A stretch of 64,000 nucleotides of DNA, from assembly GCA_032718865.1 (NCBI GenBank), contig JALUTQ010000007.1, positions 1,798,001-1,862,000 of the forward strand. The letters run 5' to 3'. Of this stretch, positions 47,867-62,865 are shown in pieces. The notes under the pieces are model-generated. The model was not told the origin of the DNA. It was given only the letters and a program-made list of their open reading frames with translations, and did not search any database. Source of the stretch: Tilletia caries. Lineage: Eukaryota; Basidiomycota; Exobasidiomycetes; Tilletiales; Tilletiaceae. The translations under genes and the position numbers were made by a program. Each line of letters begins with the position of its first letter. The stretch's first letter is position 1.

Positions 47867-49095
47867 TGTGGTTGACCGAAAGGCCGATGGGGTCTCGCTT
47901 AGTGCGGGTCTGTGCGGTTCGCTCGGGCCGGAAGAGGTGGGCTCGACCAGTCGGAGCAGGGCCAAGCAGGAGGGATAAGACTTGCGAGGCGATTGAAGAG
48001 GGTGAGGGTCGTATGAGGAGTAGGTGAATGAAGGGTAGAGTTGAGAGGGATCTTTGTAGAGTCAGGAGTCAGGCAATTCAAACGAGAGAGAGATTCTGGG
48101 AGAACAAGGTGTGGATTTCTTCTGAGAGTGAGGAAAGAGACAGGGTTTTTATAGCTAGGGGAGGGCAGGATTGGTAGCTAGGGGCGAGTGTGCGTGTGGG
48201 TGACTGAGCAGGATGGAGGGTGGCCTTGGTGCGATCGAGCAGAGGAGGATGATGGCCTTGGTGCGATCGACCAGAGGAGGATGAGACTGGGATGGTTGAG
48301 CAGGATGGAGGGTGGCCTTGGTGCGATCGAGCAGAGGAGGATGGTGGTCTTGGTGCGATCGACCAGAGAAGGATGGTGGCCTTGGGCGATCGACCAGAGG
48401 AGGATGAGACTGGGGTGGTTGAGCAGGATGTGTTGACGGTCTTGGACTTTGCTCAAGACCTTCGCCTCTTGGGGAGTGACGAGGTTGAGGACCGCGTCTT
48501 CATGGTGGGAGAGGGCCGCGGCTTGATGGGAGACGCTGACTTGAGTGCCGGGGGTGTGGATTGCTTCTCGATGGGGGGTGCTGACTTGGATGCCGGGGGT
48601 GTGGACGGCTTCTCGATGAGGGGTGCTGGCTTGGGTGCCGGGGGTGTGTTTGGGTTGGGCGAGGACTGCTTCCCGATGCGGGAGATCTCGTTGGTCTTGG
48701 CTCGTTGCTGCGCAAGCGGAGGCTCGTCAGGGCTCGGGGACGGGGTTGGCGAGCGGGAGAGGGTGAGAGTAACGACGAGTGTGGGTGTTGGCCTGCGACC
48801 ATCGGGCGCCGCATCCGGAGAGCCTTGCTGAGCCATTGTGAAGGCTGGTCGGTGTCCGCATGTAGGATAGCTGTGATGAGGTGAGAAGAGGGGTCATGTT
48901 GGAAGGAGAGGAGGGGAGATGATGGAGCTGCGTGAGGGAACGGAGATGAGGAGCAGGCTTGGGTGAATGCATGAAGCAGGGTTCAGGAATAATGAGATGT
49001 TCTTTGATCGGGATGAGTAGCGTGGTTGGCCATTTTATCCGGGAGAGATGAGACTGGAGTGACCTAGCCGCGAGGGGGTCTGAGCGGCTACCACA
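47867..49095 (-). mobile_element. 3' LTR of the large Ty3/gypsy element
   Basis: Positions 47867-49095 start TGTGGTTGACC and end GGCTACCACA, so the ends form TGTGG...CCACA. The block to 48998 is repeated nearly identically at 58598-60968. A poly-purine tract on the element strand (G-rich, plus-strand 49096-49109) lies directly inside. It contains 45-bp tandem units (about 48,200-48,420; GCAGGATGGAGGGTGGCC) and, on the element sense strand, a Pro/Ser-rich open frame (48836-48453, MAQQGSPDAAPDGRR...) conserved in the other LTR. Confidence 0.85.
48200..48420. repeat. ~45-bp tandem repeats inside the LTR
   Basis: Four to five imperfect units contain GTGCGATCGAGCAGAGGAGG (or GACCAGAGGAGG). The other LTR has fewer units (about 58,940-59,045), which is a normal copy-number difference. 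Confidence 0.8.
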
Positions 49096-50720
49096 ACCCC
49101 CCCCCCCCAACTAATGAGGTCGAGCCGTGGTCGACCAGGGTCGTGTAAAGGTCGGGGTCGAGGTCGAGGGCAGGTCGGCAGCATGGCGGCGTGCAAAAGT
49201 AGCAGTCGTTCGGGTGGCTAACGTTTTCGGTCGTCGGAACGCTTTCTGGAACGTTCGTTTGTGCGTTGGGGTCGATTGAGCATTCAGCTTCCTCGCCGTT
49301 GTAGCAGCTGGGGTGGTTAGGAAGCTCTCGGAGCGTGCCCGGGTTCGGGTCATCGAACGTAACAGTGGCCCCAGGCCCAGGCAAGTCGTTAATCATCGCT
49401 TGAGGTTCATGGATGAGAGTAGGTTGGGGTCCAAGCGTTGTGTTGAACGTTCCGTCGACTGCGTCGTCCAGGAAAAAACGTTCCTCGTTGATCACACGAG
49501 GCCTTGGAAAGTATTCGCGCAGGCGATCGGAGCCGTAGTTTCGTTCGAGGGGGGTACCATCGAGCTCTTGAAGTTCGTACGAACCGGAATGGGTCTGTCG
49601 GATGATCGCGTAAGGTCCCTTCCAGCGATCCTCAGCCTTGGCCATGAAGGTGGAGGTTGACTTGATCAGTACCATCGTACCGGGAGCAAGAGGTTCTCGC
49701 CGTTTGTGATCCTGTCGTCGGTCCATATAATCCCGTCCTTGCGCCCGTGCTTGGTGTAATAGTGCAGCGGCCGTCTGAAGGTCTTCGTCCCGTCTTCGAA
49801 GTTGGCGGGCTCGGGCACCCAGGAGGTCCGCTCGGGTGTGAATCTGAGCCCAGTCAACGATCTGGAACGAAGTGAGGTCGTGATCGATGGGCAGGAGCGG
49901 GCTGTATCCGAAGACAAGTTCGAAAGGGGATCGTCCGGTCGTTCGTCGGGCGGTGATGCGGTCTGCCAGGAGGATGTGTGGCAGGTAAAGATGGCATCGT
50001 TCACGGTCATCGTAGGAAGCCTTAAGCAGTCCTTCGACGATTGGGGCGTGTCCTCGCTCCACAATTGCGTTCCCTTGAGGATGGTTTGGTGTGATTCGCG
50101 CATGTCGTAGACCCAGGCGTCGCAATAGTGCCTCAGTTTCTCCCGAGTTCTCTGGGCCGTTGTCGGTCAGGATTTGCCGTACCATGGGACCGTAGCGTGC
50201 GAGGATGTCGTCCTCGATGAACTTGGCGACAGAGGAGGCAAGCTTGTTCGGGAGGGCGCGGGCCTCGACTCATCCTGTGAGAAGGTCTCGTGCGATAACA
50301 AGGTATCGACGTAGTCCCGTACCAGTTCCGGTGTCTACGATGTCCAGGGCAAAGTCTTCGAAGAGGCGGGGAATTGGCGTGCTTCGCTGGGCCTCTACCT
50401 CGGTCTCTCGGCTTCTTCGTTGGCAGGTAGCGCAGGACCGAGCGTGTTTGGCGCAGTCACCTCGAATGGATTCCCACCAGAAACGTTCGAGTAGCAGCGC
50501 CGTCATCGCATCTCGACCGCGGTGGCCTAGCTCCTCGTGTGCGTAGGCCATGACCTTGACCTTGTCGTCTGGATTGTCGATCACGAGCTGCGGGCTCCTT
50601 TCTGGGTTCCTGCGATACAGTCGTCCTTGACCCTTGTTCCATGAAGAAACCGATGAGCTGCCCGCGGATTCTCTTTCGTTCCTGTCGGGACAGTTTGGAA
50701 AGGTCGGGATGGGTCCCTCC
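49088..50720 (-). pseudogene. integrase region of the Ty3/gypsy element
   Basis: The zinc-binding HHCC part (HEELGHRGRDAMTALL ... CATCQR) is followed by the catalytic core with Asp in FALDIVDTG, Asp in ILTDNGPEN and Glu in NAIVERGH, then a C-terminal part with KAEDRWKGPYAI and YGSDRLREY (GPY/F-like module). The core joins new cDNA to host DNA. The frame is broken by TGA at 50270-50272, where families usually have Trp (LTG-stop-VEAR), and by a frameshift near 50,635. It overlaps the polypurine tract by a few bases. MITE F separates it from the RNase H region. Confidence 0.85.
49096..49109 (-). other. polypurine tract of the Ty3/gypsy element
   Basis: On the minus strand this is TTG followed by a run of 12 G residues and TT, directly upstream of the 3' LTR start (TGTGGTAGCC). 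Its position matches the plus-strand primer site of LTR retroelements. Confidence 0.65.
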
Positions 50721-51496
50721 GGTGGAGTAAGGATGAGCCCGGAGCGCCCCGGAGTGCTCCGTACTCCGGGGCCCAAACTCCGGGGCGCTCCGCTGACTTT
50801 CTGTGGTGCTCCGTGCTCCGTCTCTTTTCAGAGTTACACCAGCATCTTACTCCGTACTCCGTCACTATAAGGAGCACAAGAGAAAACTTACTCCGTGCTC
50901 CGTCAAATTATGAAGTGTTTGAGAAAGTCTACTCCGTACTCCGTAGCTACGGAGCCCGGATAATCCGGGGGAGCTCCGTACTCCGGGAGATGAGATCACA
51001 AATCCCAAAATATGGTATGATTTCAGAAATGTGTATGCTGGTGATCAAGCTTGTAGCAGCTGTGCTTAAGAGAACAGCCTGAGAGCGCTTGAAAAGCTGT
51101 TTTGGCGAGATTTAGACTACGAGATGAGATTTGTGAAAATAATTTTTTTGAAAATTGACCCCATAAAACCCATGTTTATAGCAAAATACCTTCCTCATGA
51201 GAAAAATGTGGAGGCCCCGGAGCGCCCCGGACTCCGGGGGTAACTCCGTACTCCGTCACATTTCGCAGGTATTTACTCCGTACTCCGGGGAAATTCTGCA
51301 AAGCCCATAGGTCAGCTCCGTACTCCGGGGAACTTCGTACAATACTTAAGCGTCAGCTCCGTACTACGGCAACGGTGAGGTAACCTCCCAATTCTCACTC
51401 CGTACTCCCGGCTCCCCCGGAGTGTGGCCCCGGATAACCGGGGCGCTCCGGCAAAGCCGCTCCGGGGCTTACTCCGTGCTCATCCTTACGGTGGAG
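50721..51496. mobile_element. motif-dense MITE F nested in the Ty3/gypsy pol gene (CTCCGTACTCCGG)
   Basis: The element (about 50727-51489, 763 bp) starts GTAAGGATGAGC and ends with the perfect inverted copy GCTCATCCTTAC. It is flanked by GGTGGA (50721-50726; 51490-51495; one more G can be counted). The interior is full of CTCCGTACTCCG and CCGGGGCGCTCCGG words in both orientations. Removing it rejoins the pol frame between the RNase H and integrase zinc-binding parts. There is no transposase. Confidence 0.88.
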
Positions 51497-53940
51497 AGCC
51501 ATAGTGCGAGTCCTCCGAAGCGTTGGACGTACTTGTTCTTCGCGAACTTGTAATCGGGGACGTCATTGTTCGTGTCGATCGATTGCGTGAGAACGGTGTG
51601 TTCGATTGACCGTACATGTCCGTCCTCCGGCCACGCTTCCGCTTCCTCTGCGTTGTTGAAGTTTGTTCGTGAGAGGCCGTCGGGAATAACGTGATGTTTG
51701 CCGGGGATGTGTCGTATCGTAAAGTCGTATTCCTTGAGGTTGGCGATCCACCGAATCATGGTGGCGTTACCAACGTCGGGCTTGTTGATCATCTGCCGGA
51801 GAGACATGGCGTCGACCTCAAGGATGAAGCGTGTGCCGATCAGATGGTACCGTAGTTTCCGGATGGCCTTGTATACTCCGCACAGCTCGAGTTTTGGTTG
51901 GCTATATCGTGCCTCGGTCTCGGTCATGGCGATGGAGTCGTACAGTACCACTACTCGTCCTCGAGGAGCAGGGTGTTCTTGAAGCAACGTGTACCCTACT
52001 GCGATCTGGGAGGAGTCCACGGAGACAACGATGGACGAGGTCGACTCGTAATCGATCACTCCGAGATAATGGTGCGCCGCGGCCGCCGTTTTTGACGTTT
52101 TTCTACCGCTGCCGTTGCCTCCGGGTTCCATTTGAACGTTCGTCCTACGAGCTTTCGCAGAGGCTCGTCGATGATGGCCATGTCCTTGATGAATGGGCGA
52201 AGGAAATTCGCGATCCCGAGGAATCCTCGGAGCGATGATTGGGAGGGACAGGGATTGGGCCATTCCTGGAGCTTGTCAATCTTGTCCGGGCCGGCGCTCT
52301 TGCCCTCGAAACCGACTCGGATCCCGGTGATATCGAGTTCATCCGTAATCACCACCAGCTTCGCTCCAGAGACGGCCAAGTGGGCGTGCTCGATTCGATA
52401 CAGGAATCGTTCGAACGTGATGGCATATTCGAAAACCCATCGCCTGATGGTTGAGTCGGGCAGCGTTTGATCATCGTATCGTGTTCTTGGTCCCTTGATA
52501 CCGAAGTCGTCGATGAATGGGACGATGTTGTCAGGCACGTCGTCTCCTCCTACGTGGTCGCTGACCCGCTGTGCCACCGCCGGAGAGTTTGTTCCTCCCT
52601 GTGGTAGTCCGGTTTTCTGAAGCAGGCCGAGGGGAGTCCTGAAGGCTGTGAGTAGTCGAGAGCCGGGATCCAAGGGTAGCTGGTCGAAGAAGGAGAGTAA
52701 GTCGCCCAAGCCGTAACATACTCTTCCCACGAAGCCGTCGACGTAATCAGGTAGGTAGGGTGGGATGTTGGCATCCCGGACGGTGTATTGGTTGGCCGTC
52801 CGCATGTCAATGATCATTCTGAGGTCTCCATTCTTCTTCTTGACGAAGAAATGTGAAGTGACATAGGGGCTCGTGGATGGCTCTAGGTCGCCGTCTCGAA
52901 GTTGTTCTCTGAGGAGTCGGATTGCTGCTTCTCGATCTGCTCTTGGATATGGGGGGGATGGGTCCGTCCACGGTTCGTGTTTCGAGAGGTTGATGACGAA
53001 GGGGTCAGTGTAGGCCGGGTTAAGGGACCGTTTGTCCTTCTTGTCGAAGGCAATCGCTTTTTGACGGAGCGTGATCACATGGAGTAGGAGGTTGCGTTCT
53101 TCGTCGTTGATGAATCCTGGGGGGCCAAAGCTGAGATTGTTAATTCGTTCAATGGTCAGCTTTTCTGTGGGTCGGAAGGGAGGGACGTTAGCAGTCAATG
53201 GTGTGCTGTATGGATCGCGATCGTATTGAATCGTTCGCAGAGTTTGGTGAATGAAGTTCGAGGACGGCACGGCGGTGGGTCGGATCTTATCCTCCACGGT
53301 TTTTCGCTTCGTATTAATGTGGTGAGTCATCGGAGTCGTCGTCCATGCTCCAGAGCTGACGAGCCTGTGCTGATTGACCTGTAACTGAAGGTGGTTAGCT
53401 TCAGCTTTCGTTCGTAAATGTCCCGCACCCTCAAGTGTATCGGTGTGAGCAGGGTCGTCAGGGTCGACCACCTGTAACTCCACGATCTTGTTGTCATCGG
53501 TCGTCATCGTAGCATTTCCTGACACACAGTCAATGCTGATTCGAAGGGCGTTGAGGGCTGGCATTCCAAGCAAGATATCGTATCCACATTTCTCTTGAAC
53601 GAAGAAGTGTACTGTTGCCATGACCGAACCGATTCGGATGGGACAATGTTCGACCAGTCCGTCGAGGACGCTCTTGTTCTGCCCGGCACCGACCACGACA
53701 TGTCGTCCATCGTAACGGAGTGGGAATCGGTGCTCCTGTTGTATTCGGCTTCGCATCACATTGATCTGGGAACCGGAGTCGAGTAGGGCTCGGTATCCCC
53801 GGTTGCCGATGTAAACTGTTCCCATCGGTAGTCCACGAGTGTACCAAGATGGTCCATCTTCTTCCCCGTGGATGGTGGCGTGGTTGATTTGGTGCACGAG
53901 GTGTTCCGTCACTTCTTCCTGGTTGTGGGGGAATCGCGTT
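51490..53940 (-). pseudogene. protease, reverse transcriptase and RNase H of the Ty3/gypsy element
   Basis: From about 53,940 the frame reads the aspartic protease (ALLDSGSQINVM, catalytic DSG). It is followed by the reverse transcriptase (SHFFVKKKNGDLRMIIDMR; GLGDLLSFFDQLPL; TGLPQGGTNSPA; catalytic FIDDFG) up to 52,056, then, after a frameshift near 52,085, the RNase H domain (VSVDSSQIAVG; KLELCGVYKAIRKL; RFILEVDAMSL; HIPGKHHVIPDGLSR). Family members use FIDD or YVDD at the active site. The order PR-RT-RH-IN is that of Ty3/gypsy (Metaviridae). A +1 frame change joins it to Gag. Apart from the frameshift the catalytic blocks look intact. Confidence 0.9.
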
Positions 53941-55900
53941 CATTAGCTGGCTGTATATGTGGGCTGCGACCGTTTGCGGGTGGGTGTCCTCGCTTGTGTC
54001 CCAAGGCACCGGCCGTCCAGTGACGGGCCAAGGTAGCATCTCTCCGCGTAGCTGGGCGAGAATGGCCTTCTGTACGTCAGGGGATAGACCGACGATCGTC
54101 TGCCAGGGGAGCGTTACTGGTGCGTTCATCAGACTCTGGGCCACATCTTGAGGTTGGGAGAGCCGAGTAACCTTGCTTCGTCTTGCTCGTTTCCACAGAT
54201 TCGGGAGCTTCGGTGTCTTTGGGTCTTGCATCATGTCCTCCTGGTCCTCGTCCTCCATCTCATCCTGGGCTCTCGGGGATTGTCCAGGCAAGTCGGGAGG
54301 ATCTGACAGGCTTGAACTTGGCGAGATCTGAGGCGTTGCAGGTTTGGATGCAGCCGGCGTGGGAGGCAGATCGAATCGAACCTGTGGTCCCTGCCCTTGT
54401 CCTCCGGCGGCATGGCTCCTTGTGAGGCGAGGTCGAACGTTTCGGTCGTCGATGTCTTTGTCGGGTGATCGTTTTTCTGCTGCCTCCACGTTGATTGAGT
54501 GGGTATGGCACCCTCGGTCTTCGGTGTCATCTGGGGGGAACACAAACGTGAGATAGTTGGCCTGCATTGCATCCACCTTGCTGGCAGGAGTCGGAGGGGG
54601 TCCCTGTTGACGCAATCGTTCCATTACCGGGTCTTGAAGATGGCCGGTTGGAGCTGAAATCCGGGTTCCGTCATTCCAGCAGACCGAGTTGTTGACCAGT
54701 CGCACGATTCCTTGTTGAATGTGGGAGAAGAGTATCGGGCATCGGTCTCGAGCATGCTGTGGGTCGTTGCAGTATACACATGATGGCGGTCGTTGGATGG
54801 GTTGGGCATTGGGTCCTGTGGCCGGATAGCTGGTGTTATTGTTGTTGGTCGGGCCGTTCCAGGTAGGCATCGGTGCGCTTCCGACGTTTCCCTGAGGTGA
54901 AAGTGTCGTGTTGTACCCGGCATATGGCTGGGTTCTGACTGGTCCTGGAAAGGGGGGTGGGACAGTGTTCGGGTTGCCTGCGAGTTCTTGGGGAGGCATT
55001 GCGTGGTGAAGAACCGTAGGGCCAAGTCGCTCCATGGCCTGGGCAAAGTTGAGGCTGATTTTCTCAAGTTGACGCACCACTTCGTTGGAGCTCGAGTTCT
55101 TGGAAGTTGTTCCCTGCTGAGACAAGTTTAAGGCCGGCCCGTGTGTTGGAGCTCGGTGATCGATCTGAGCTCGTTCTCGTTGCATCTCGAGCGTCGCCTT
55201 CTTGAAGAACGTCTCGGGTTGGAAACAGCGTTGAACCTCTTCTAGGACTTGTTGGAAAGTTGCGTCCTCGTCCCTCAGAGATGAGTTCTGGAGCGTGCTG
55301 AGCAGCTCAATCGGCAGTCCTCGGACAAAGTATTGCAACAGCTGCTTCGCCCCAATTTGTCCTCGTTGGACGAGCTTGTCTCAGATGTCCTTGAAGGCCA
55401 AGCTGTAATGGTTGAGTTCTGTGAGCGTTCCGATGGTTCGGTTTCGGAGGACGAAGGCGCTGAGATCGTGCTCAGTGTACTTGTCCATCTCGGGCCCTTC
55501 GAATCCCGTCATTATGAAGTGCCGTACTGCCGTCCAGTTCCCCGCTATGTACGAGGAGTGAGCCTCGATGAGGCTGAAGATGTCGGGATCCTTGTCTTCG
55601 ACGTAGAAGGATAGGTATTTCAAACGTTCCTCGTCCGAGATGTCCAGAGCCTCGAACTTTCGCAGAAAGGCTTTTGCGTTTCGTCCCTCGAATTTCCCGA
55701 CTGCGTCGATCGTTCCTTTCGTCGGAGCCATCCCGTACCTTCGCCCTGCGGGCGCAGGCAACGTTTCTTGGGGGCTTGCACTCAAGGGCGGTCGTGACGC
55801 GCTGGAGAGGATGGTTGGACTCATGGCTCGCTGGCTAACCGGAACTTGATCTTGTTCGCCTCGGGTTTCGCTGTACCGATCGAACTCGTTCTCGTCAACC
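53530..55900 (-). pseudogene. Gag (capsid and zinc knuckle) of the Ty3/gypsy element
   Basis: After the SUMO-like region the frame reads through a Ser/Pro linker into a Ty3-type capsid region (VGKFEGRNAKAFLRKFEAL; YIAGNWTAVRHFI), is stopped by TGA at 55381-55383, and goes on in the same frame (LVQRGQIGAKQLLQYFVRGL ... FQQVLEEVQRCF). A zinc knuckle C-X2-C-X4-H-X4-C (CVYCNDPQHARDRC) follows near 54,770-54,730, then an acidic linker. It overlaps pol, which lies in another frame, at 53530-53912. Gag forms the particle that packages element RNA. The single TGA is the only clear break in this part. Confidence 0.82.
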
Positions 55901-57552
55901 GACGGTCCTCCTCCAGTTTGCTCGGACAGGACATCGATCTCGTCCATGTTGTCGAGATCGTTTTGATAGATTGTCATTCGTTCCAAGATTCGCTGTCCGT
56001 CGATGATGTACCTGAATGTTTCTCCATACGCCTGATTCAGGTGGTTGGCGATGAGAGAGAAGGAGGCCGTGGTCTTGATAGTAGCGGTCCAGGTTCCGAT
56101 CTTTTCACCCTCCAGCCTCAGTTTTACGTATCCAGGCGGAGGCGGCGGAAGGGTGGTGAGAGCTCCTTTCTGAATGAGCCTAAGCGCATTGGGGTCCGAG
56201 CTCGTTCGTTCGGGGGTATCTTCCTCGAGGTAGTGCTGGTACGAGATTGCGTCGAGAGTGTCTCCGTCTTGAAGATGTGGGCTGGGGTAATTCGGGTTGA
56301 TTTCCTTTTTCGTTCTTCAGATACCGAAACGTTCGACCATAGGTGTATTCCAGATAGTTCGTTACGGTGGACAGAGGGCTTCTGGGGGGGGGACAGGATG
56401 AGCGTCCAGAATCCGGTTGCCGGTCCTCGCAGTTGGAGTCGAACAGAGTTGCTTTGGGCAGGGACTTGTCCAATGTTTCCTCGAATGATTCCGTGCCCAG
56501 CGCCGATGTAAACGTCCCCAAAAATGCAACGTTGGTTTCCGCTGTCGAGAGAGATGCTTTGGTGGACCGGGGGAACTGATTTGTTAGTCTGGTTGGGTTG
56601 TGTCATTCTCGTGCTAGGTTGGATGATCCAGGATGGTTCGATGCCCATTGCGACCGAGATTTCGTACGTCTGCCCTTTTTCGAAGGCCGTGTCCGCTCAA
56701 GGGAACGTTCCTGAGTAACCGTAGCCCATGGTATGCGTACAGGGGCATTCCCGCTTGGTCGAGGTGAAGCCGGAGCCAGGTGAGTAAGTCATCCCCGTTG
56801 ACTTCCGATCCTACGCACATGGAGAACGTTCGCCGTTCCCATTCGACGTCGACTTGAAGGTATATCGGCTCACGGTCCCCATCAACTCCTGGGCCAAGGA
56901 AGAGCTCGTGGGTGGTCAATCGTGCGTTAGGTCGTTCGATCAGCTGGCTTCGGCGGAAATGGAGCAAGATCGTTCCGGTGTTGAGGGTTGAGAGTGGAAG
57001 GTCGTCGTCTGGTTCGCCTTCGTAATGTTGGAGGTACGTTCCTTCGAGAGCGAGTTCGAAGGCTCGTTTGACGTTGCCGAGAGTCAGCTGGTTTCGGGAT
57101 CGTAGATGTACGGCGGTGGTTGGGATTCCGGGCCAGAGGTCGGTCAGCAAGACTTGTAGGCGTACTTCGTCGTTTCTCGTGGCAGGTCCATCGTAGTGAG
57201 TATACACTTCTCCTTCCGATCCGACGGGGCTTAGTTGGAGTAGAAGGCGAATCCACTCGGGCTTTTGGAAAGGGATAACTCGGGCTGGGTTCATGACTAC
57301 GGTCAAAACGTCCCCATTCATCAGAGGTAGTTGTCGGATCTGTTCGTAGGTGCTGACGGGGACTGTTCGTATCGTGAGAAAGAAATCAGCTTCGTTGGTT
57401 CGGGTAGCCTTGGCGTAACTTGCGGCCATCGAGCCCAAGGTCTCGTCTTCGGTTTTGATCCAACTTCGTTCGTATCTCAAGTCATCTTTCAAGGAGAGGT
57501 GGATGCTATCGTTTTTCATGGTCATCATTCTGCTATGTTTTCGTATGTTCAA
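55900..57552 (-). pseudogene. tandem SUMO/ubiquitin-like domains upstream of Gag
   Basis: This stretch lies between the first open frame of the element and Gag. Read with frame changes near 56,705, 56,385 (a G9 run) and 56,320, it shows about five repeats of one pattern. Each begins with a beta strand of V/I-x-L-x-L type (IHLSLKDD; VRLQVLLTDL; IYLQVDVEW; VRLQLRGP; VKLRLEGE), has a helix and an F-R-Y or similar strand, and ends with an L-x-x-G-D-x-L/I-x-V element (LMNGDVLTVV; FEKGQTYEISVAMG; LQDGDTLDAISYQ; LDNMDEIDVLSEQ). The last repeat closely follows SUMO (FRYIIDGQRI ... DEIDVLSEQTGGG) and runs into Gag. The SUMO-like fold is inferred from pattern; the intact form was probably a single Gag N-terminal extension. 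Confidence 0.65.
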
Positions 57553-57832: not shown

Positions 57833-58515
57833 TTAGTCGACGAGGTCTAGATTCCGGATCGCGTTCTGTAACTGCTGGGCGTCGGTCTGTCGGGAAGGGC
57901 GCTTAGTTGGTTCTTGAGAGCGGTCCCGATTGCGTCGGTTTTCCGAGGGTCGGTATACGTCCGAGGGTCGGTAGTAGGGTCGGGTTGTTCGGTAGTCGCG
58001 GGATCGAGTACTGGTGGTGTCTTGGGGTCTTCGTCGAGGCTCGGGGGAGGGGGATCGGTTTGACCGGCGGTACTGACACCTTTCGGTCGTTCTGGCTGCT
58101 CGAGGGGTTGGCGTGTATCGCTCGTTCCGTAGTCGAAGCTGGTGGGCCTCAAGGCTCTCCAATCTTGATTCGAGGTCGGAGTTGAATCGATCGAGGCGTG
58201 GAGCGTGCTTCTCGATTCCTTGTAGCGCTCGTTGAAGTCGCTCGGCGGTCTCGCGGAGGTGATCGAGGTCGATGTCCTTGAGTAGCTCCTTTAGGGGCGC
58301 TACGATGTCTTGGAGTTCGTTGGAAGGGGCCTTTTCGGAGGTCGTGGGAGCGTCAACGTCGGTGTCCGATTGCTCTAGCTGGTCTTGGTCCTCGTATTCT
58401 CCGTAGTCAGAATGAGGTGAGGAGGGGGGGTTGGCTGGTTGTCTTCGGGGATCCAGTAGTCGGGATCTTCCTCGATGGATCGAGTTGGTGTGTCGAGGTT
58501 GTTTGCGCTGGTCAT
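57833..58515 (-). pseudogene. 5' open frame of the Ty3/gypsy element, charged coiled-coil protein
   Basis: ATG at 58515 (MTSANNLDTPTRSIEED) opens a frame that shifts by one base at a G7 run near 58,425 and then continues to the stop at 57833. The product has an acidic N-terminal part, a Leu/Glu-rich coiled-coil-like segment (LKELLKDIDLDHLRET ... RLQRALQGIEKH) and a basic Arg/Ser/Tyr-rich tail ending NAIRNLDLVD. No family is recognised. Its place just after the primer site suggests it is the first product of the element. Confidence 0.45.
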
Positions 58516-58577: not shown

Positions 58578-58594
58578 TCATGCAGTCTCCACCA
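58578..58594 (-). other. probable primer-binding site of the Ty3/gypsy element
   Basis: Three bases inside the 5' LTR, the minus strand reads TGGTGGAGACTGCATGAG. TGG complements the CCA end of a tRNA. The tRNA cannot be named with confidence. Confidence 0.5.
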
Positions 58595-59499
58595 ATATGT
58601 GGTTGACCGAAAGGCCGATGGGGTCTCGCTTAGTGCGGGTCTGTGCGGTTCGCTCGGGCCGGAAGAGGTGGGCTCGACCAGTCGGAGCAGGGCCAAGCAG
58701 GAGGGATAAGACTTGCGAGGCGATTGAAGAGGGTGAGGGTCGTATGAGGAGTAGGTGAATGAAGGGTAGAGTTGAGAGGGATCTTTGTAGAGTCAGGAGT
58801 CAGGCAATTCAAACGAGAGAGAGATTCTGGGAGAACAAGGTGTGGATTTCTTCTGAGAGTGAGGAAAGAGACAGGGTTTTTATAGCTAGGGGAGGGCAGG
58901 ATTGGTAGCTAGGGGCGAGTGTGCGTGTGGGTGACTGAGCAGGATGGAGGGTGGCCTTGGTGCGATCGAGCAGAGGAGGATGGTGGCCTTGGGCGATCGA
59001 GCAGAGGAGGATGGTGGCCTTGGGCGATCGACCAGAGGAGGATGAGACTGGGAGGTTGAGCAGGATGTGTTGACGGTCTTGGACTTTGCTCAAGACCTTC
59101 GCCTCTTGGGTAGTGACGAGGTTGAGGACCGCGTCTTCATGGTGGGAGAGGGCCGCGCCTTGATGGGAGACGCTGACTTGAGTGCCGGGGGTGTGGATTG
59201 CTTCTCGATGGGGGGTGCTGACTTGGATGCCGGGGGTGTGGACGGCTTCTCGATGAGGGGTGCTGGCTTGGGTGCCGGGGGTGTGTTTGGGTTGGGCGAG
59301 GACTGCTTCCCGATGCGGGAGATCTCGTTGGTCTTGGCTCGTTGCTGCGCAAGCGGAGGCTCGTCAGGGCTCGGGGACGGGGTTGGCGTGCGGGAGAGGG
59401 TGAGAGTAACGACGAGTGTGGGTGTTGGCCTGCGACCATCGGGCGCCGCATCCGGAGAGCCTTGCTGAGCCATTGTGAAGGCTGGTCGGTGTCCGCATG

Positions 59500-60834
59500 T
59501 ACGAGGTGGAGGGCAGAAGTCTTCGAATGAACACAACACCAAACACCATAATTCTCATACTCTCTGCGTTCACCACAATACCAACCTCACACTTTCCAGT
59601 CACAACCACACATATGACAATAGTAGAAGTTGAAGCAATGGAGATGTTTGAGAGTAAACATTACTCGGAAAAATTGACCGTGGCGCTGCCTGACGACCTT
59701 GACACGTCGGGGCATATCGTCGATGTACTTGTTGAGATGAGCTACTTCGATCTTTGCCCACTCCTCTTTGGCCGCCTCCCAAAGCTCGTCGGGCTTGGTC
59801 TGGCTGAGGTTACGAGCACGAAGACGGGACTTGAGCAGGCGCCAAGCCTTTTCGATCGGGTTGAGATCCGGAGAAAGTGGCGGGTGAGAATGGCGCTGAA
59901 TACCCGCCTCCTTCCGAGCCTTGTTGGTAGCCTTCGAGTTATGAATGGAAGCGTTATCTTCCACGACCTTGTAGGGCGTGAACACCTCGAGCTCACACTG
60001 CAGCACAAAGGGGCGTAAGGCCCCATTAATGACGTGCTCAATGTAGCGTTTCGAATCGACCTTGCGGTAGCCCGTTCCCGACAATCGTACCAGTGGAGAC
60101 TTCTTCCCGTAGGCGATTGCTGCCCAGATCATAACCGTTTTTGCGAGCCGTTCTGAAGCTCCTAGAAGTGTTCTGAGGAACCGCAGCGGCTCCTCGAAAG
60201 CGGCTGACGAAGGGCTTGCGCCTAAGGTTAGAAGTGTCCAAAGAACACTCGTCCGTGAAGATAATTCGGCGCCAGTCAGTAATCCGGTTCTTATTTGCCC
60301 AGATTTTTCGCTTTTTGACCGCAGCAACACTCAGTGCTGGACGTTCGCGGGCGATATAGCGCGCTATGCCATGCTTGTGAGCAATGCGCCTAACCTTCCA
60401 CGGCTTGATGGGTAGGCCGTGTCGGGTCAGATTTTCGGCGACGCCTCGCCATGTCGCCCATCGCATCAACAGCACGGTGCGGACTACCCGACGACAGTCC
60501 CGTGCAGACAGCGTAGGAGGACGGCCGCTGCGCGGGAGTGTGTTATGTGACTTTGTCTTTTCCCAGCGTGCCTTTGTGTAGGCAACGGTACTGGGGCTGC
60601 AGCCGATTTGTTTGGCAATGTACTCGTATGTATGGCCCATTTCAATCATATATCGAATACGGCCACGCCTGGAAGGCGTCAGAGGAGGTCTACGAGCAGC
60701 AGCAACACGCGGCATTGTGTTTGTGTAGAGAAAATGTAGAGATGCTAAGTGTGTGAAGTTGGGAGAGGGTGTGGTGAGGTGGTGGTTTTGGTGAATTTTA
60801 ATTTCATTCGAAGACTTCTGCCCTCCACCTCGTA
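59500..60834 (-). mobile_element. Tc1/mariner element inserted in the LTR
   Basis: Inverted repeats start CGAGGTGGAGGGCAGAAG and extend about 30 bp; TA at 59500-59501 and 60833-60834 is the target duplication. The 3' LTR carries the undisturbed site (GCATGTAGGATAGC, TA at 48863-48864), which proves the ends to the base. The element is 1331 bp with one transposase gene. Confidence 0.95.
59587..60715 (-). pseudogene. Tc1-type transposase (DD34E) with one frameshift
   Basis: ATG at 60715 (MPRVAAARRPPLTPS). An N-terminal helix-turn-helix pair binds the element ends (YEYIAKQIGCSPSTVAYTKARW; GRPPTLSARDCRRVVRTVL). The catalytic triad is Asp in FTDECSL, Asp in VVEDNASIH and Glu in NPIEKAW, with 34 residues between the last two, the DD34E spacing of Tc1-like enzymes. 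The frame changes near 60,195 (after KPFVSRF), between the first and second Asp, so the enzyme is inactive unless the base is an assembly error. All three acids are present. Confidence 0.88.
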
Positions 60835-60967
60835 GGATAGCTGTGGTGAGGTGGGAAGAGGGGTCATGTTGGAAGGAGAGGAGGGGAGATGATGGAGCTG
60901 CGTGAGGGAACGGAGATGAGGAGCAGGCTTGGGTGAATGCATGAAGCAGGGTTCCGGAATAATGAGA

Positions 60968-61690
60968 TCCCACCGGCCTGGCTTTTGAGCCAGAGTGTTC
61001 CCCAGACTTTTTGAGGCCATGAGTTTATAGAAATTAGAACATGAACGGGAAATGAAAAGTAGCAAGAGACTGCATGCCTTGTGGACTGATGTTGCTTAAT
61101 GTTTGGTCTGAATATCTTAGACTCGAATTCTCAAAAGACGTGCTCAATGCTGTGACCTGTCAGATGTGGATGGCATACCCAAACAATGGTCCAGAAGCAC
61201 TTGGCACAGTCAATCATCCAAATGACATAGACGCCCTACGCGCCTCGCTCTCAGGGTAGCTTCGCTACCCTTCGAGCTCTCCGCCATGATTTTCCACAAA
61301 CCATAGATGATGAGCAGATAGATCTCCCCAAAGGCCAAAGCTGACAAGCTGTAATGTAACATGTGTGATGCGTACCTGATCGGTGCCCACAGGCCACAGT
61401 TGATGAATCAATATGGACTGACGCTTATCGCGCCTCGCGCTCAGGGTAGCTTCGCTACCCTTCGAGCTCTCCGCCATGATTTTCCACACAACATAGATGA
61501 TGAGCAGATAGAACTCCCCAAAGGTGTAACGGAACACGTGTATTGCGTAATGATCGGTGCCCACAGGCCACAGTTGATAAATCAATATGGACTGACGCTT
61601 ATCGCGCCTCGCTCTCAGGGTAGCTTCGCTACCCTTCGAGCTCTCCGCCGTGAGTTGTCACACATGACGTATATGATGAGCGGATGTGTG
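60968..61690. mobile_element. fragment of the Tc1-type element interior with three satellite units
   Basis: From CCCACCGGCCTGGCTTTTG onward the sequence follows 28741-29345 of the non-autonomous Tc1-type element, then adds one more hairpin unit. Units start near 61,232, 61,430 and 61,604, each with AGGGTAGC-TTC-GCTACCC. The terminal inverted repeats are absent, so this is a truncated copy fused to the broken 5' LTR. Confidence 0.8.
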
Positions 61691-62865
61691 CGAACACAGG
61701 ACGAGATAGTCTAATCACCTAGCTTTCACTAAGGACTGTGTTCGGAGAGAACTGAGATGAAACAAGTATGCAGTGTCGGACTAATTACAAGAGGGACGCG
61801 AGGAAGAGAAAAGAGGTAACTGGAAGAATGGCGTGGGAAATGTGGAGGATGAAAGTGTTGCTATGCGGAGGTGTGGGAAAGGGAAGAGAGGAAGATAGAG
61901 ATAATAGATAAGATAACTGGCCATGTGGCGAAGCCACGTGTTGCCAGCACATCCCCACCCAAAAAGAGACAACTGTCCTCAGTTGTGTATGGGCGAGAGA
62001 AACTGCAACGGCATGAAGTCAGAAGAAGAGAGGATGTGATGCGCATGGAGGGGCGGGATGTGGGTAGAACTCGGATGATGTAGCTGTCAAAATTGAAGGC
62101 AATAGTGACGAGAAATACGACCTCCCGGACCGAGTACCGAGGTCGATACCGAAGTTGGTATCAGTCGGGACGGGGTCGCGGGGATAACGTGCTGCAGGCT
62201 GCTGACGGGGTGGATGATGCTTTAGCCGTTGTCCCCACTCCCCAAAGGAACAGGTCGAGGGATGAGAAGAGAGCGTCGTTGAGTGATGGCGGCCGAGGAC
62301 GACACAAACGGCCGTTGTGTGATGGTGATGGTAAACCGAATCGAGCGAAAGAGGAGCAGTGGTGAATCGTATGCGCTCCCCGTGCGTGAATCCGTCTCGA
62401 CGACCAACGTTGTATCTCTTGTCGCTTGGCAGTGGACCAGCTCCGTGAGTACGTCATTCTTGGCCCTGTCTGCGCGTCTGCCATCCCTGGCGTGCATGTA
62501 TGCGCGGACGGAGTAGCGGGAAGTCATGACGCGCGCGACTTTTGTCGGCCAGTCCGCAGCAGCCCCGTGCGTGTTCTTTTCGGGATGCTCGTATGAGTCG
62601 GTCGAGCGACGCGCACCGCGCAGCTGTTGTCGTTGACCCTGAATGAAGGAAAAGCCGGGCAGGCCAGCTGCGGCGCGAAAACGTGGCGGCCAGCGCGAAC
62701 GGCGGAAAAGAGCGTGTCGCGACTGGTAAAGTTCATGTGGCCGTATCGTGAATCGTCCACAGTGGCTCGGTGCATGACGGCGCTCTCGAGCGAGAGCGCG
62801 GCGTGGTACGATCGAACTGTCCGGGAGAAGCCGTGGGCCGGCGACGCGGAGGAGTGCGGCTGTCG

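What the first reader, a model, noticed from the sequence alone, without database searches (positions are those of the whole stretch)
55900..57552. LTR retrotransposon with a run of SUMO/ubiquitin-like domains before Gag
Between the primer site and Gag of the Ty3/gypsy element there are about five repeats of a beta-grasp-like pattern: a V/I-x-L-x-L strand, a helix, and a final L-x-x-G-D-x-L/I strand. The last one reads FRYIIDGQRI then DEIDVLSEQTGG, extremely close to SUMO. Gag proteins of Ty3/gypsy elements are not known to me to carry such arrays. Possible roles are recruiting SIM-bearing host factors, acting as decoys of the SUMO system, or nuclear targeting. The element is broken by frameshifts, so an intact relative is needed.
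Basis: partly seen in the sequence, partly recalled or inferred. Interest (0 to 1): 0.93.

Follow-up and report, generated by a model that had tools for sequence, protein, structure and literature searches.

The report
Retrotransposon Gag with SUMO-like array
A jumping element of a wheat bunt fungus carries, in front of its shell protein, a chain of domains related to the cell's SUMO tag, and the last one ends in the same two glycines at which cells normally cut SUMO precursors.

Summary
The window (minus strand) holds a frameshifted Ty3/gypsy element of a Tilletia species. Three other copies in the same genome (C1, C6, C21) read the array and at least the first part of Gag in one open frame. 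A second family, about 27% identical in Gag, carries a duplicated two-domain cassette (a-b, c-d) before Gag: one open copy in this genome, and annotated proteins of T. laevis, T. indica and T. controversa.

Profiles of two domain classes hit SUMO chains of the PDB over nearly full length: b/d/d5 at about 2e-7, a/c/d4 at about 1e-6. In the window element d5 is clearly SUMO-like, d4 only through d5 and class a/c, d1 and d3 weakly, d2 not at all. Both AlphaFold models were too poor to use. The array is translated: dN/dS is 0.08 in frame, about 2 in the other frames.

The b, d and d5 domains all end in GGG, 13 of 13 (near-identical copies included), at each cassette end and before Gag, as SUMO precursors end in GG plus a tail. 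I infer, untested, that a host SUMO protease cuts there. The SIM-decoy idea is weakened. Seven paper searches aimed at such an element listed none.

The parts
47867..49066 (-). 3' LTR of the window element
   Evidence: blastn to the C21 LTRs; 97.8-99.3% identical in the main blocks to the window's 5' LTR
58598..60968 (-). 5' LTR as far as it aligns, interrupted by a Tc1/mariner-type insertion at 59500-60834
   Evidence: 32-bp perfect inverted repeats; DDE_3
58578..58597 (-). primer-binding-like site (contains TGGTGGAGACTGC), directly after the 5' LTR
   Evidence: follows the LTR in the window and C21; the same sequence is present in C1 and C6, whose LTR ends were not mapped; tRNA not identified
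57833..58515 (-). ORF0: separate upstream frame, acidic/coiled-coil-like with an Arg-rich tail (226 aa in C21); its frame is broken near the start in the window
   Evidence: dN/dS 0.21 in frame against 1.3 and 2.0 out of frame, C21 vs C6; the C1 comparison did not run
57283..57513 (-). d1, N-terminal domain of the array; beta-grasp only weakly supported
   Evidence: no relevant PDB hit; model unusable
56643..56877 (-). d3, weak SUMO/UBL resemblance; broken by a frame change in the window
56218..56453 (-). d4, related to d5 and to class a/c; spread over three frames in the window, open in C1, C6 and C21
55906..56139 (-). d5, SUMO-like domain ending SEQTGGG
55903..55914 (-). GGGP motif: SUMO-precursor-like diglycine junction before Gag
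   Evidence: GGG in 13 of 13 class b/d/d5 domains
55165..55719 (-). Gag region in the place of the capsid, with an in-frame TGA in the window copy
   Evidence: placed by position and by alignment with family B; no Pfam capsid family hit
54739..54780 (-). zinc-knuckle motif CVYCNDPQHARDRC of Gag (C-x2-C-x4-H-x4-C, motif recalled)
   Evidence: no Pfam zinc-knuckle hit
52056..53939 (-). aspartic protease and reverse transcriptase frame
   Evidence: RVT_1 2.3e-12, Asp_protease_2 1.1e-6
51469..52275 (-). RNase H frame
   Evidence: RT_RNaseH 3e-18
49088..50827 (-). integrase, in two frames in the window
   Evidence: Integrase_H2C2 8.4e-15 (50270-50827); rve 0.0011, below its cut-off (49088-50269)

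Best explanation
Ty3/gypsy elements of Tilletia acquired SUMO-like domains and expanded them into an N-terminal leader of the Gag frame. Shown: the array and Gag are read in one frame in relatives; SUMO-like domains of two classes are present; one class ends in GGG in every case seen; in family B the two-domain cassette was duplicated, so that a GGG closes each cassette and the last one stands before Gag; the array is under strong purifying selection in family A. Inferred: a host SUMO-specific protease (Ulp/SENP, peptidase C48; C48 matches are present in this genome) recognises the last half of the domain and its diglycine tail, as in SUMO precursors, and cuts after GG. This would release the leader cassettes and give Gag a new N-terminus, usually Gly-Pro. 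The leader would hold Gag soluble or prevent early assembly until it is removed, independently of the element's own aspartic protease.
For: One frame: C21 1802 aa, C6 1212 aa, C1 973 aa (the last two break off within Gag or just after it), C23 1386 aa; P0001, P0002 and P0004 run from SUMO-like domains to protease in one annotated protein, P0003 (partial) to the start of the protease. SUMO identity: profile A4 (b, d, d5) hits SUMO-1 chains over positions 2-78 of 79 at 2.3e-7; A5 (a, c, d4) hits SUMO chains at 1.2e-6; A6 (b, d only) hits single SUMO-2 chains at 2.7e-4 over positions 21-78. Rad60-SLD is over its cut-off in P0003 (3.5e-11) and P0004 (8.7e-7), both on domain c. Column-shuffled d1-d5, 20 each, reach at most 8.4% hhalign probability. 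Cassette duplication: a-c 99%, b-d 99.8-99.9%. GGG tail: 9 of 9 b/d domains and 4 of 4 d5 copies; in A1 the C21 row is 22% identical to P0003, yet GGGP is invariant in all 5 rows. Class a and c domains do not end in GG, 0 of 9. Host SUMO, exons read by eye, ends DEIDAMVEQVGG-ARTSRTA. The arginine of the RF-x-x-D-G strand is invariant in 11 of 11 rows of A4; I recall it as a Ulp1 contact, and the search meant to check this listed nothing useful. Host C48 matches: 13 places, two of them in one frame. dN/dS 0.080 in frame.
Against: No cleavage is shown. GGGP could be a flexible linker. Residues before GG vary (EQT, EQH, GMH, EQA, RQV, EVE, EIE, MME, EQR, GMT), and in five of these ten the Q found before the last residue in SUMO is missing. 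The residues after the cut would mostly be Gly-Pro; Ulp acceptance was not tested. The host C48 matches were not shown to include the true SUMO protease. The element has its own aspartic protease. The structure models were useless (pLDDT 36 and 35). C1 has Thr, and P0002 domain b has Asp, in place of the Pro after GGG. d4 has no direct match to SUMO1. The copies are not 13 independent lineages.
Confidence: 0.42

Rival explanations
1. The array stays on Gag and works as a structural or targeting part of the particle (assembly spacing, solubility, nuclear or chromatin targeting); GGGP is only a flexible hinge.
For: Three of the five d-domains of family A (d1-d3) are weakly or not recognisably SUMO-like, as expected if only a fold or a spacer is needed; only one GGG per array in family A; the element has its own protease.
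Against: A mere hinge would not need GGG at the same place in 13 of 13 domains while the linker after it changes about three times faster than d5 (dN 0.098 against 0.029, C21 vs C6; the linker is still constrained, dN/dS 0.15).
Confidence: 0.3
2. The domains are SUMO mimics that bind SIM-bearing host factors or swamp the SUMO system.
For: Clear kinship with SUMO; several copies per protein.
Against: The basic segment of SUMO (host KVKRHT; by recall the SIM groove) is IKTTA in d5 and mostly VPCGAT or APCGAT in b/d. Invariant positions sit mainly in the last half of the domain and the tail.
Confidence: 0.13
3. After cleavage, the GG-ended cassettes are themselves conjugated to proteins as element-encoded SUMO-type modifiers.
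For: Exposed GG is the requirement for E1 activation of SUMO (established knowledge); cassettes are self-contained units each closed by GGG.
Against: The best-matching domain, d5, is only 28-31% identical to SUMO1 and the others match by profile only, so E1/E2 recognition is doubtful; nothing tested.
Confidence: 0.1
4. The region is not translated or is an annotation artefact; the similarity to SUMO is chance.
For: Only the broken copy was visible in the window; low Pfam score for the window's d5 alone.
Against: Open in 3 of 3 other family A copies and in family B; dN/dS 0.08 in frame, about 2 out of frame; profile hits to SUMO.
Confidence: 0.02

Closest known systems
Ty3/gypsy LTR retrotransposons (Metaviridae-like)
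   Same: LTRs, primer-site-like sequence, Gag with zinc-knuckle motif, aspartic protease, reverse transcriptase, RNase H, integrase in that order
   Different: Gag is preceded in frame by SUMO-like domains; a separate ORF0 lies upstream
SUMO precursors (SMT3, SUMO1-3; Pfam Rad60-SLD)
   Same: Sequence kinship over nearly the whole domain; C-terminal diglycine followed by more residues
   Different: Tandem inside a Gag polyprotein, no introns (the host SUMO gene appears to have them), divergent, SIM-facing basic residues not kept
Polyubiquitin and ubiquitin-ribosomal fusion precursors
   Same: Tandem or N-terminal modifier units with GG at each junction; frames of both kinds are seen in the host
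   Different: Here SUMO-like, alternating two classes with GG only on one, fused to a retroelement Gag
Pestiviruses with cellular ubiquitin insertions in the polyprotein
   Same: A captured cellular modifier acts as a processing signal cut by host hydrolases; passages of PMC8310069
   Different: RNA-virus recombinants with ubiquitin; here a heritable, duplicated, conserved SUMO-like array in an LTR element
DNA transposons carrying Ulp1 or OTU proteases (Ginger1, Mutator-like)
   Same: Mobile elements that engage the SUMO/ubiquitin system; passages of PMC2836005
   Different: Those carry the protease, this one carries the substrate-like modifier

Membership tests
Ty3/gypsy LTR retrotransposon | paired LTRs | tested here: met
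   window 47867-49066 and 58598-60968; C21 98.7-99.3% and C23 99.8% identical LTRs
Ty3/gypsy LTR retrotransposon | aspartic protease, RT, RNase H, then integrase | tested here: met
   Integrase_H2C2 over its cut-off, the rve core below its cut-off
Ty3/gypsy LTR retrotransposon | Gag with capsid and zinc knuckle | tested here: inconclusive
   zinc-knuckle motif seen by eye in all five rows of A1; no Pfam capsid or zinc-knuckle hit in the element proteins
SUMO family (Rad60-SLD / SMT3) | sequence profile match | tested here: met
   A4, A5, A6 hit SUMO chains. Rad60-SLD: over cut-off in P0003 and P0004; below it in the window and P0001; no hit at E <= 1 in P0002; C21 below it as a whole protein (19.7 bits) but above it in the genome scan (24.9 bits)
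SUMO family (Rad60-SLD / SMT3) | beta-grasp fold | tested here: inconclusive
   AlphaFold mean pLDDT 36 and 35
SUMO family (Rad60-SLD / SMT3) | C-terminal GG followed by a removable tail | tested here: met
   GG plus following residues in 13 of 13 class b/d/d5 domains; 0 of 9 class a/c domains; removal not tested
SUMO family (Rad60-SLD / SMT3) | cut by Ulp/SENP and conjugated | not testable with these tools
   needs biochemistry or proteomics
SUMO family (Rad60-SLD / SMT3) | basic SIM-facing residues on strand 2 / helix 1 (recalled) | tested here: not met
   alignment with host SUMO, SUMO1 and SUMO2

The most novel reading that the evidence does not exclude
A retrotransposon has turned the host's SUMO-precursor maturation into a Gag maturation step: SUMO-like cassettes, each closed by a diglycine, are cut from Gag by host Ulp proteases, and the released GG-ended cassettes may act as element-encoded modifiers.
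Probability: 0.3. Interest if true: 0.87.

Novelty: new variant of a known kind. Interest (0 to 1): 0.7.

Why it matters
Gag of LTR elements is normally matured by the element's own protease (established knowledge). A conserved SUMO-precursor-like junction would be a route by which a host modifier protease sets the Gag N-terminus. It would also be a case of SUMO capture and domain duplication by a retrotransposon. It makes a directly checkable prediction: Gag N-termini and free GG-ended fragments in fungal proteomes.

Tried and rejected
AlphaFold of the window's d1-d3 piece without an alignment (pLDDT 36.3) and of P0003 with five sequences (35.2): both too poor; not used as evidence, and no fold search was run on them. 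Protein search with the C21 frame, residues 1-900: 6820 candidates, none at E <= 0.001. The alignment search (only the 7998 candidates sharing most words were scored) gave one further Tilletia piece and a Chara Gag protein; the latter aligns to 5% of the query and shows protease, weak Gag and zinc-knuckle hits but no SUMO-like Pfam hit. IMG/VR scan: 30 stretches matched a pattern, none encodes a relative. Ubiquitin as the nearest relative was rejected: hhalign with ubiquitin is at most 12.3% for any element domain, while SUMO1 gives 55-96% for a, b, c, d and d5. SIM decoy downgraded. Non-coding artefact rejected. A Rad60-SLD scan of the genome gave 20 matches: mostly ubiquitin frames, a SUMO exon, a Ddi1-like frame, the elements and a few short or unclear frames. 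Paper searches: ten, all used. Seven were aimed at SUMO- or ubiquitin-like domains in retroelements, one at Tilletia elements, one at pestiviruses, one at Ulp1 contacts. None of the listings showed such an element; the library is open-licence PMC only. Of papers I saw listings and abstract beginnings, plus passages of PMC2836005, PMC8310069 and PMC9172201 (the last speaks of gypsy elements as most common in bunt fungi and has no 'SUMO').

Full report
WHERE. The window is part of a 38.1 Mb, 40-contig genome (G000:C7:1798001-1862000). One element frame of the same genome (C23) is 100% identical over the searched region to a protein named Tilletia laevis, with further relatives named T. indica and T. 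controversa, so the host is a Tilletia bunt fungus; the exact species is inferred. The element lies on the minus strand: 5' LTR 58598-60968 as far as it aligns, interrupted by a Tc1/mariner-type element at 59500-60834; primer-site-like sequence from 58597; 3' LTR 47867-49066. The main LTR blocks are 97.8-99.3% identical to each other. Protease, RT, RNase H and integrase follow Gag in that order.

THE OBSERVATION. The region 57528-55903 precedes Gag and is broken into four open pieces in the window. Domains placed by coordinates: d1 57513-57283, d2 57177-56947, d3 56877-56643, d4 56453-56218, d5 56139-55906, the last ending SEQTGGG followed by PSVDE.

OPEN-FRAME RELATIVES. A search of the own genome with the d5-Gag piece found five places: the window, three copies of the same family (C1 and C6 98%, C21 93% identical) and one divergent place, C23 at 27%. 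In the three other copies the array and at least the first part of Gag are in one open frame (973, 1212 and 1802 aa); C21 continues into protease and RT. C23 is family B: its 1386-aa frame carries four SUMO-like domains before Gag and runs to the protease. The annotated proteins P0001 (T. laevis), P0002 and P0003 (T. indica) and P0004 (T. controversa) have the same plan; P0005 (T. indica, 325 aa, partial) covers a, b and part of c.

SUMO KINSHIP. d5 alone: PDB SUMO-1 at 0.0019, a tandem SUMO-2 chain at 4e-7 as the sum of two weak stretches; Rad60-SLD at 7.6e-4, under the curated cut-off. Two classes appear, a/c and b/d, which do not match each other (at most 2.1%). hhalign: a-c 99%, b-d 99.8-99.9%, d5 to b and d 82-92%, d4-d5 93-94%, d4 to c 24-48%; to SUMO1 d5 95-96%, d 81-87%, b 78-80%, a 73-77%, c 55-73%, d4 only 0.2-0.3%; column-shuffled d1-d5 reached at most 8.4%. 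Profile A4 (11 rows, b/d/d5) hits SUMO-1 over positions 2-78 at 2.3e-7, A5 (9 rows, a/c/d4) hits SUMO at 1.2e-6, and A6 (9 rows, without d5) still hits SUMO-2 at 2.7e-4 over positions 21-78. Ubiquitin is far weaker. Rad60-SLD is above its cut-off in P0003 and P0004 (on domain c), below it in P0001 and the window, and absent at E <= 1 from P0002; C21 is below it as a whole protein but above it in the genome scan (24.9 bits). Against a count of five: d1 and d3 rise only slightly above shuffled queries and d2 does not; none of the three hits a relevant PDB chain.

TRANSLATION. C21 against C6 over the 539-codon array: 111 synonymous and 32 non-synonymous differences, dN/dS 0.080; read in the other two frames the ratio is 2.03 and 2.16; against C1 0.079, and 1.84 and 2.40. 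By domain, C21 vs C6: d1 0 (only 3 differences), d2 0.13, d3 0.06, d4 0.03, d5 0.05, capsid-place region 0.08, linker after GGG 0.15. dS varies along the array (0.06 in d1 to 0.62 in d5), so the copies may be mosaic. C6 and C1 are too close to each other to be informative (7 and 6 differences).

THE DIGLYCINE. Every class b/d/d5 domain seen ends GGG: b in 5 of 5 and d in 4 of 4 family B proteins, d5 in 4 of 4 family A copies (the latter near-identical; P0005 is 90% identical to P0003). Pro follows in 8 of 9 and 3 of 4. None of the 9 class a/c domains ends in GG. The GGG closes the first cassette (a-b), the second (c-d), and in family A the whole array, directly before the linker to the capsid-place region. 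The host SUMO gene, exons read by eye at C4:1683227, ends DEIDAMVEQVGG with ARTSRTA after it and appears to have introns, whereas the element domains have none. The host genome has 13 peptidase C48 (Ulp-type) matches over the cut-off, two of them in one frame; which of them is the SUMO protease was not worked out.

MECHANISM. Shown: one frame, SUMO kinship, cassette duplication, purifying selection, GGG at every cassette end seen. Inferred: host Ulp-type cleavage after GG. Most invariant positions lie in the last half of the domain and the tail; the arginine of the RF-x-x-D-G strand is invariant in 11 of 11 rows, and I recall it as a Ulp1 contact, unchecked (one search gave nothing useful). 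The SIM-facing basic segment (recalled) is not kept, which speaks against the decoy idea. The element also encodes its own aspartic protease, so a SUMO-type cut would be an extra or earlier step. Pestiviruses with captured ubiquitin are a working parallel: cellular hydrolases cut behind the ubiquitin and give the authentic NS3 N-terminus (passages of PMC8310069).

WHAT FAILED. No relatives outside Tilletia with the array were found, within the limits of word-based searching and capped candidate lists.

VERDICT. A real variant of a Ty3/gypsy element that none of seven aimed paper searches listed (open-licence PMC only). Kinship with SUMO is well supported for d5 and for a-d of family B, and indirectly for d4; a count of five in the window is not. 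The cleavage mechanism is my leading but unproven reading.

Noticed in passing
window 59500-60834: Tc1/mariner-type element with perfect 32-bp inverted repeats inside the 5' LTR; its DDE_3-bearing frame (59587-60330) is overlapped by a second frame (60038-61024) that looks like the rest of the transposase.
   Followed up: partly
window 50728-51482: About 755 bases present in the window copy between RNase H and integrase but not aligned in the C21 copy.
   Followed up: no
window 57833-58515; C21, C6: ORF0, a separate frame upstream of the SUMO-Gag frame, dN/dS 0.21 from 21 differences.
   Followed up: partly
G000:C23:665149-667890: Tandem array of nearly identical units of about 330 bases inside the family B element downstream of Gag; real expansion or assembly artefact.
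   Followed up: no
C23 element ends: LTRs 99.8% identical, TG...CA ends and TTGT on both sides: a recent insertion.
   Followed up: partly
G000, e.g. C5:1486758-1488665, C35, C36, C28, C40: Several C48 peptidase matches in long open frames (383-947 aa) that might belong to DNA transposons.
   Followed up: no
window 61198-61698: Three copies of a 137-base direct repeat beside the element, 65-83% identical to the first.
   Followed up: no
G000:C21:68268-80353: Short diverged ubiquitin-like frames clustered on C21, possibly ubiquitin pseudogenes.
   Followed up: no
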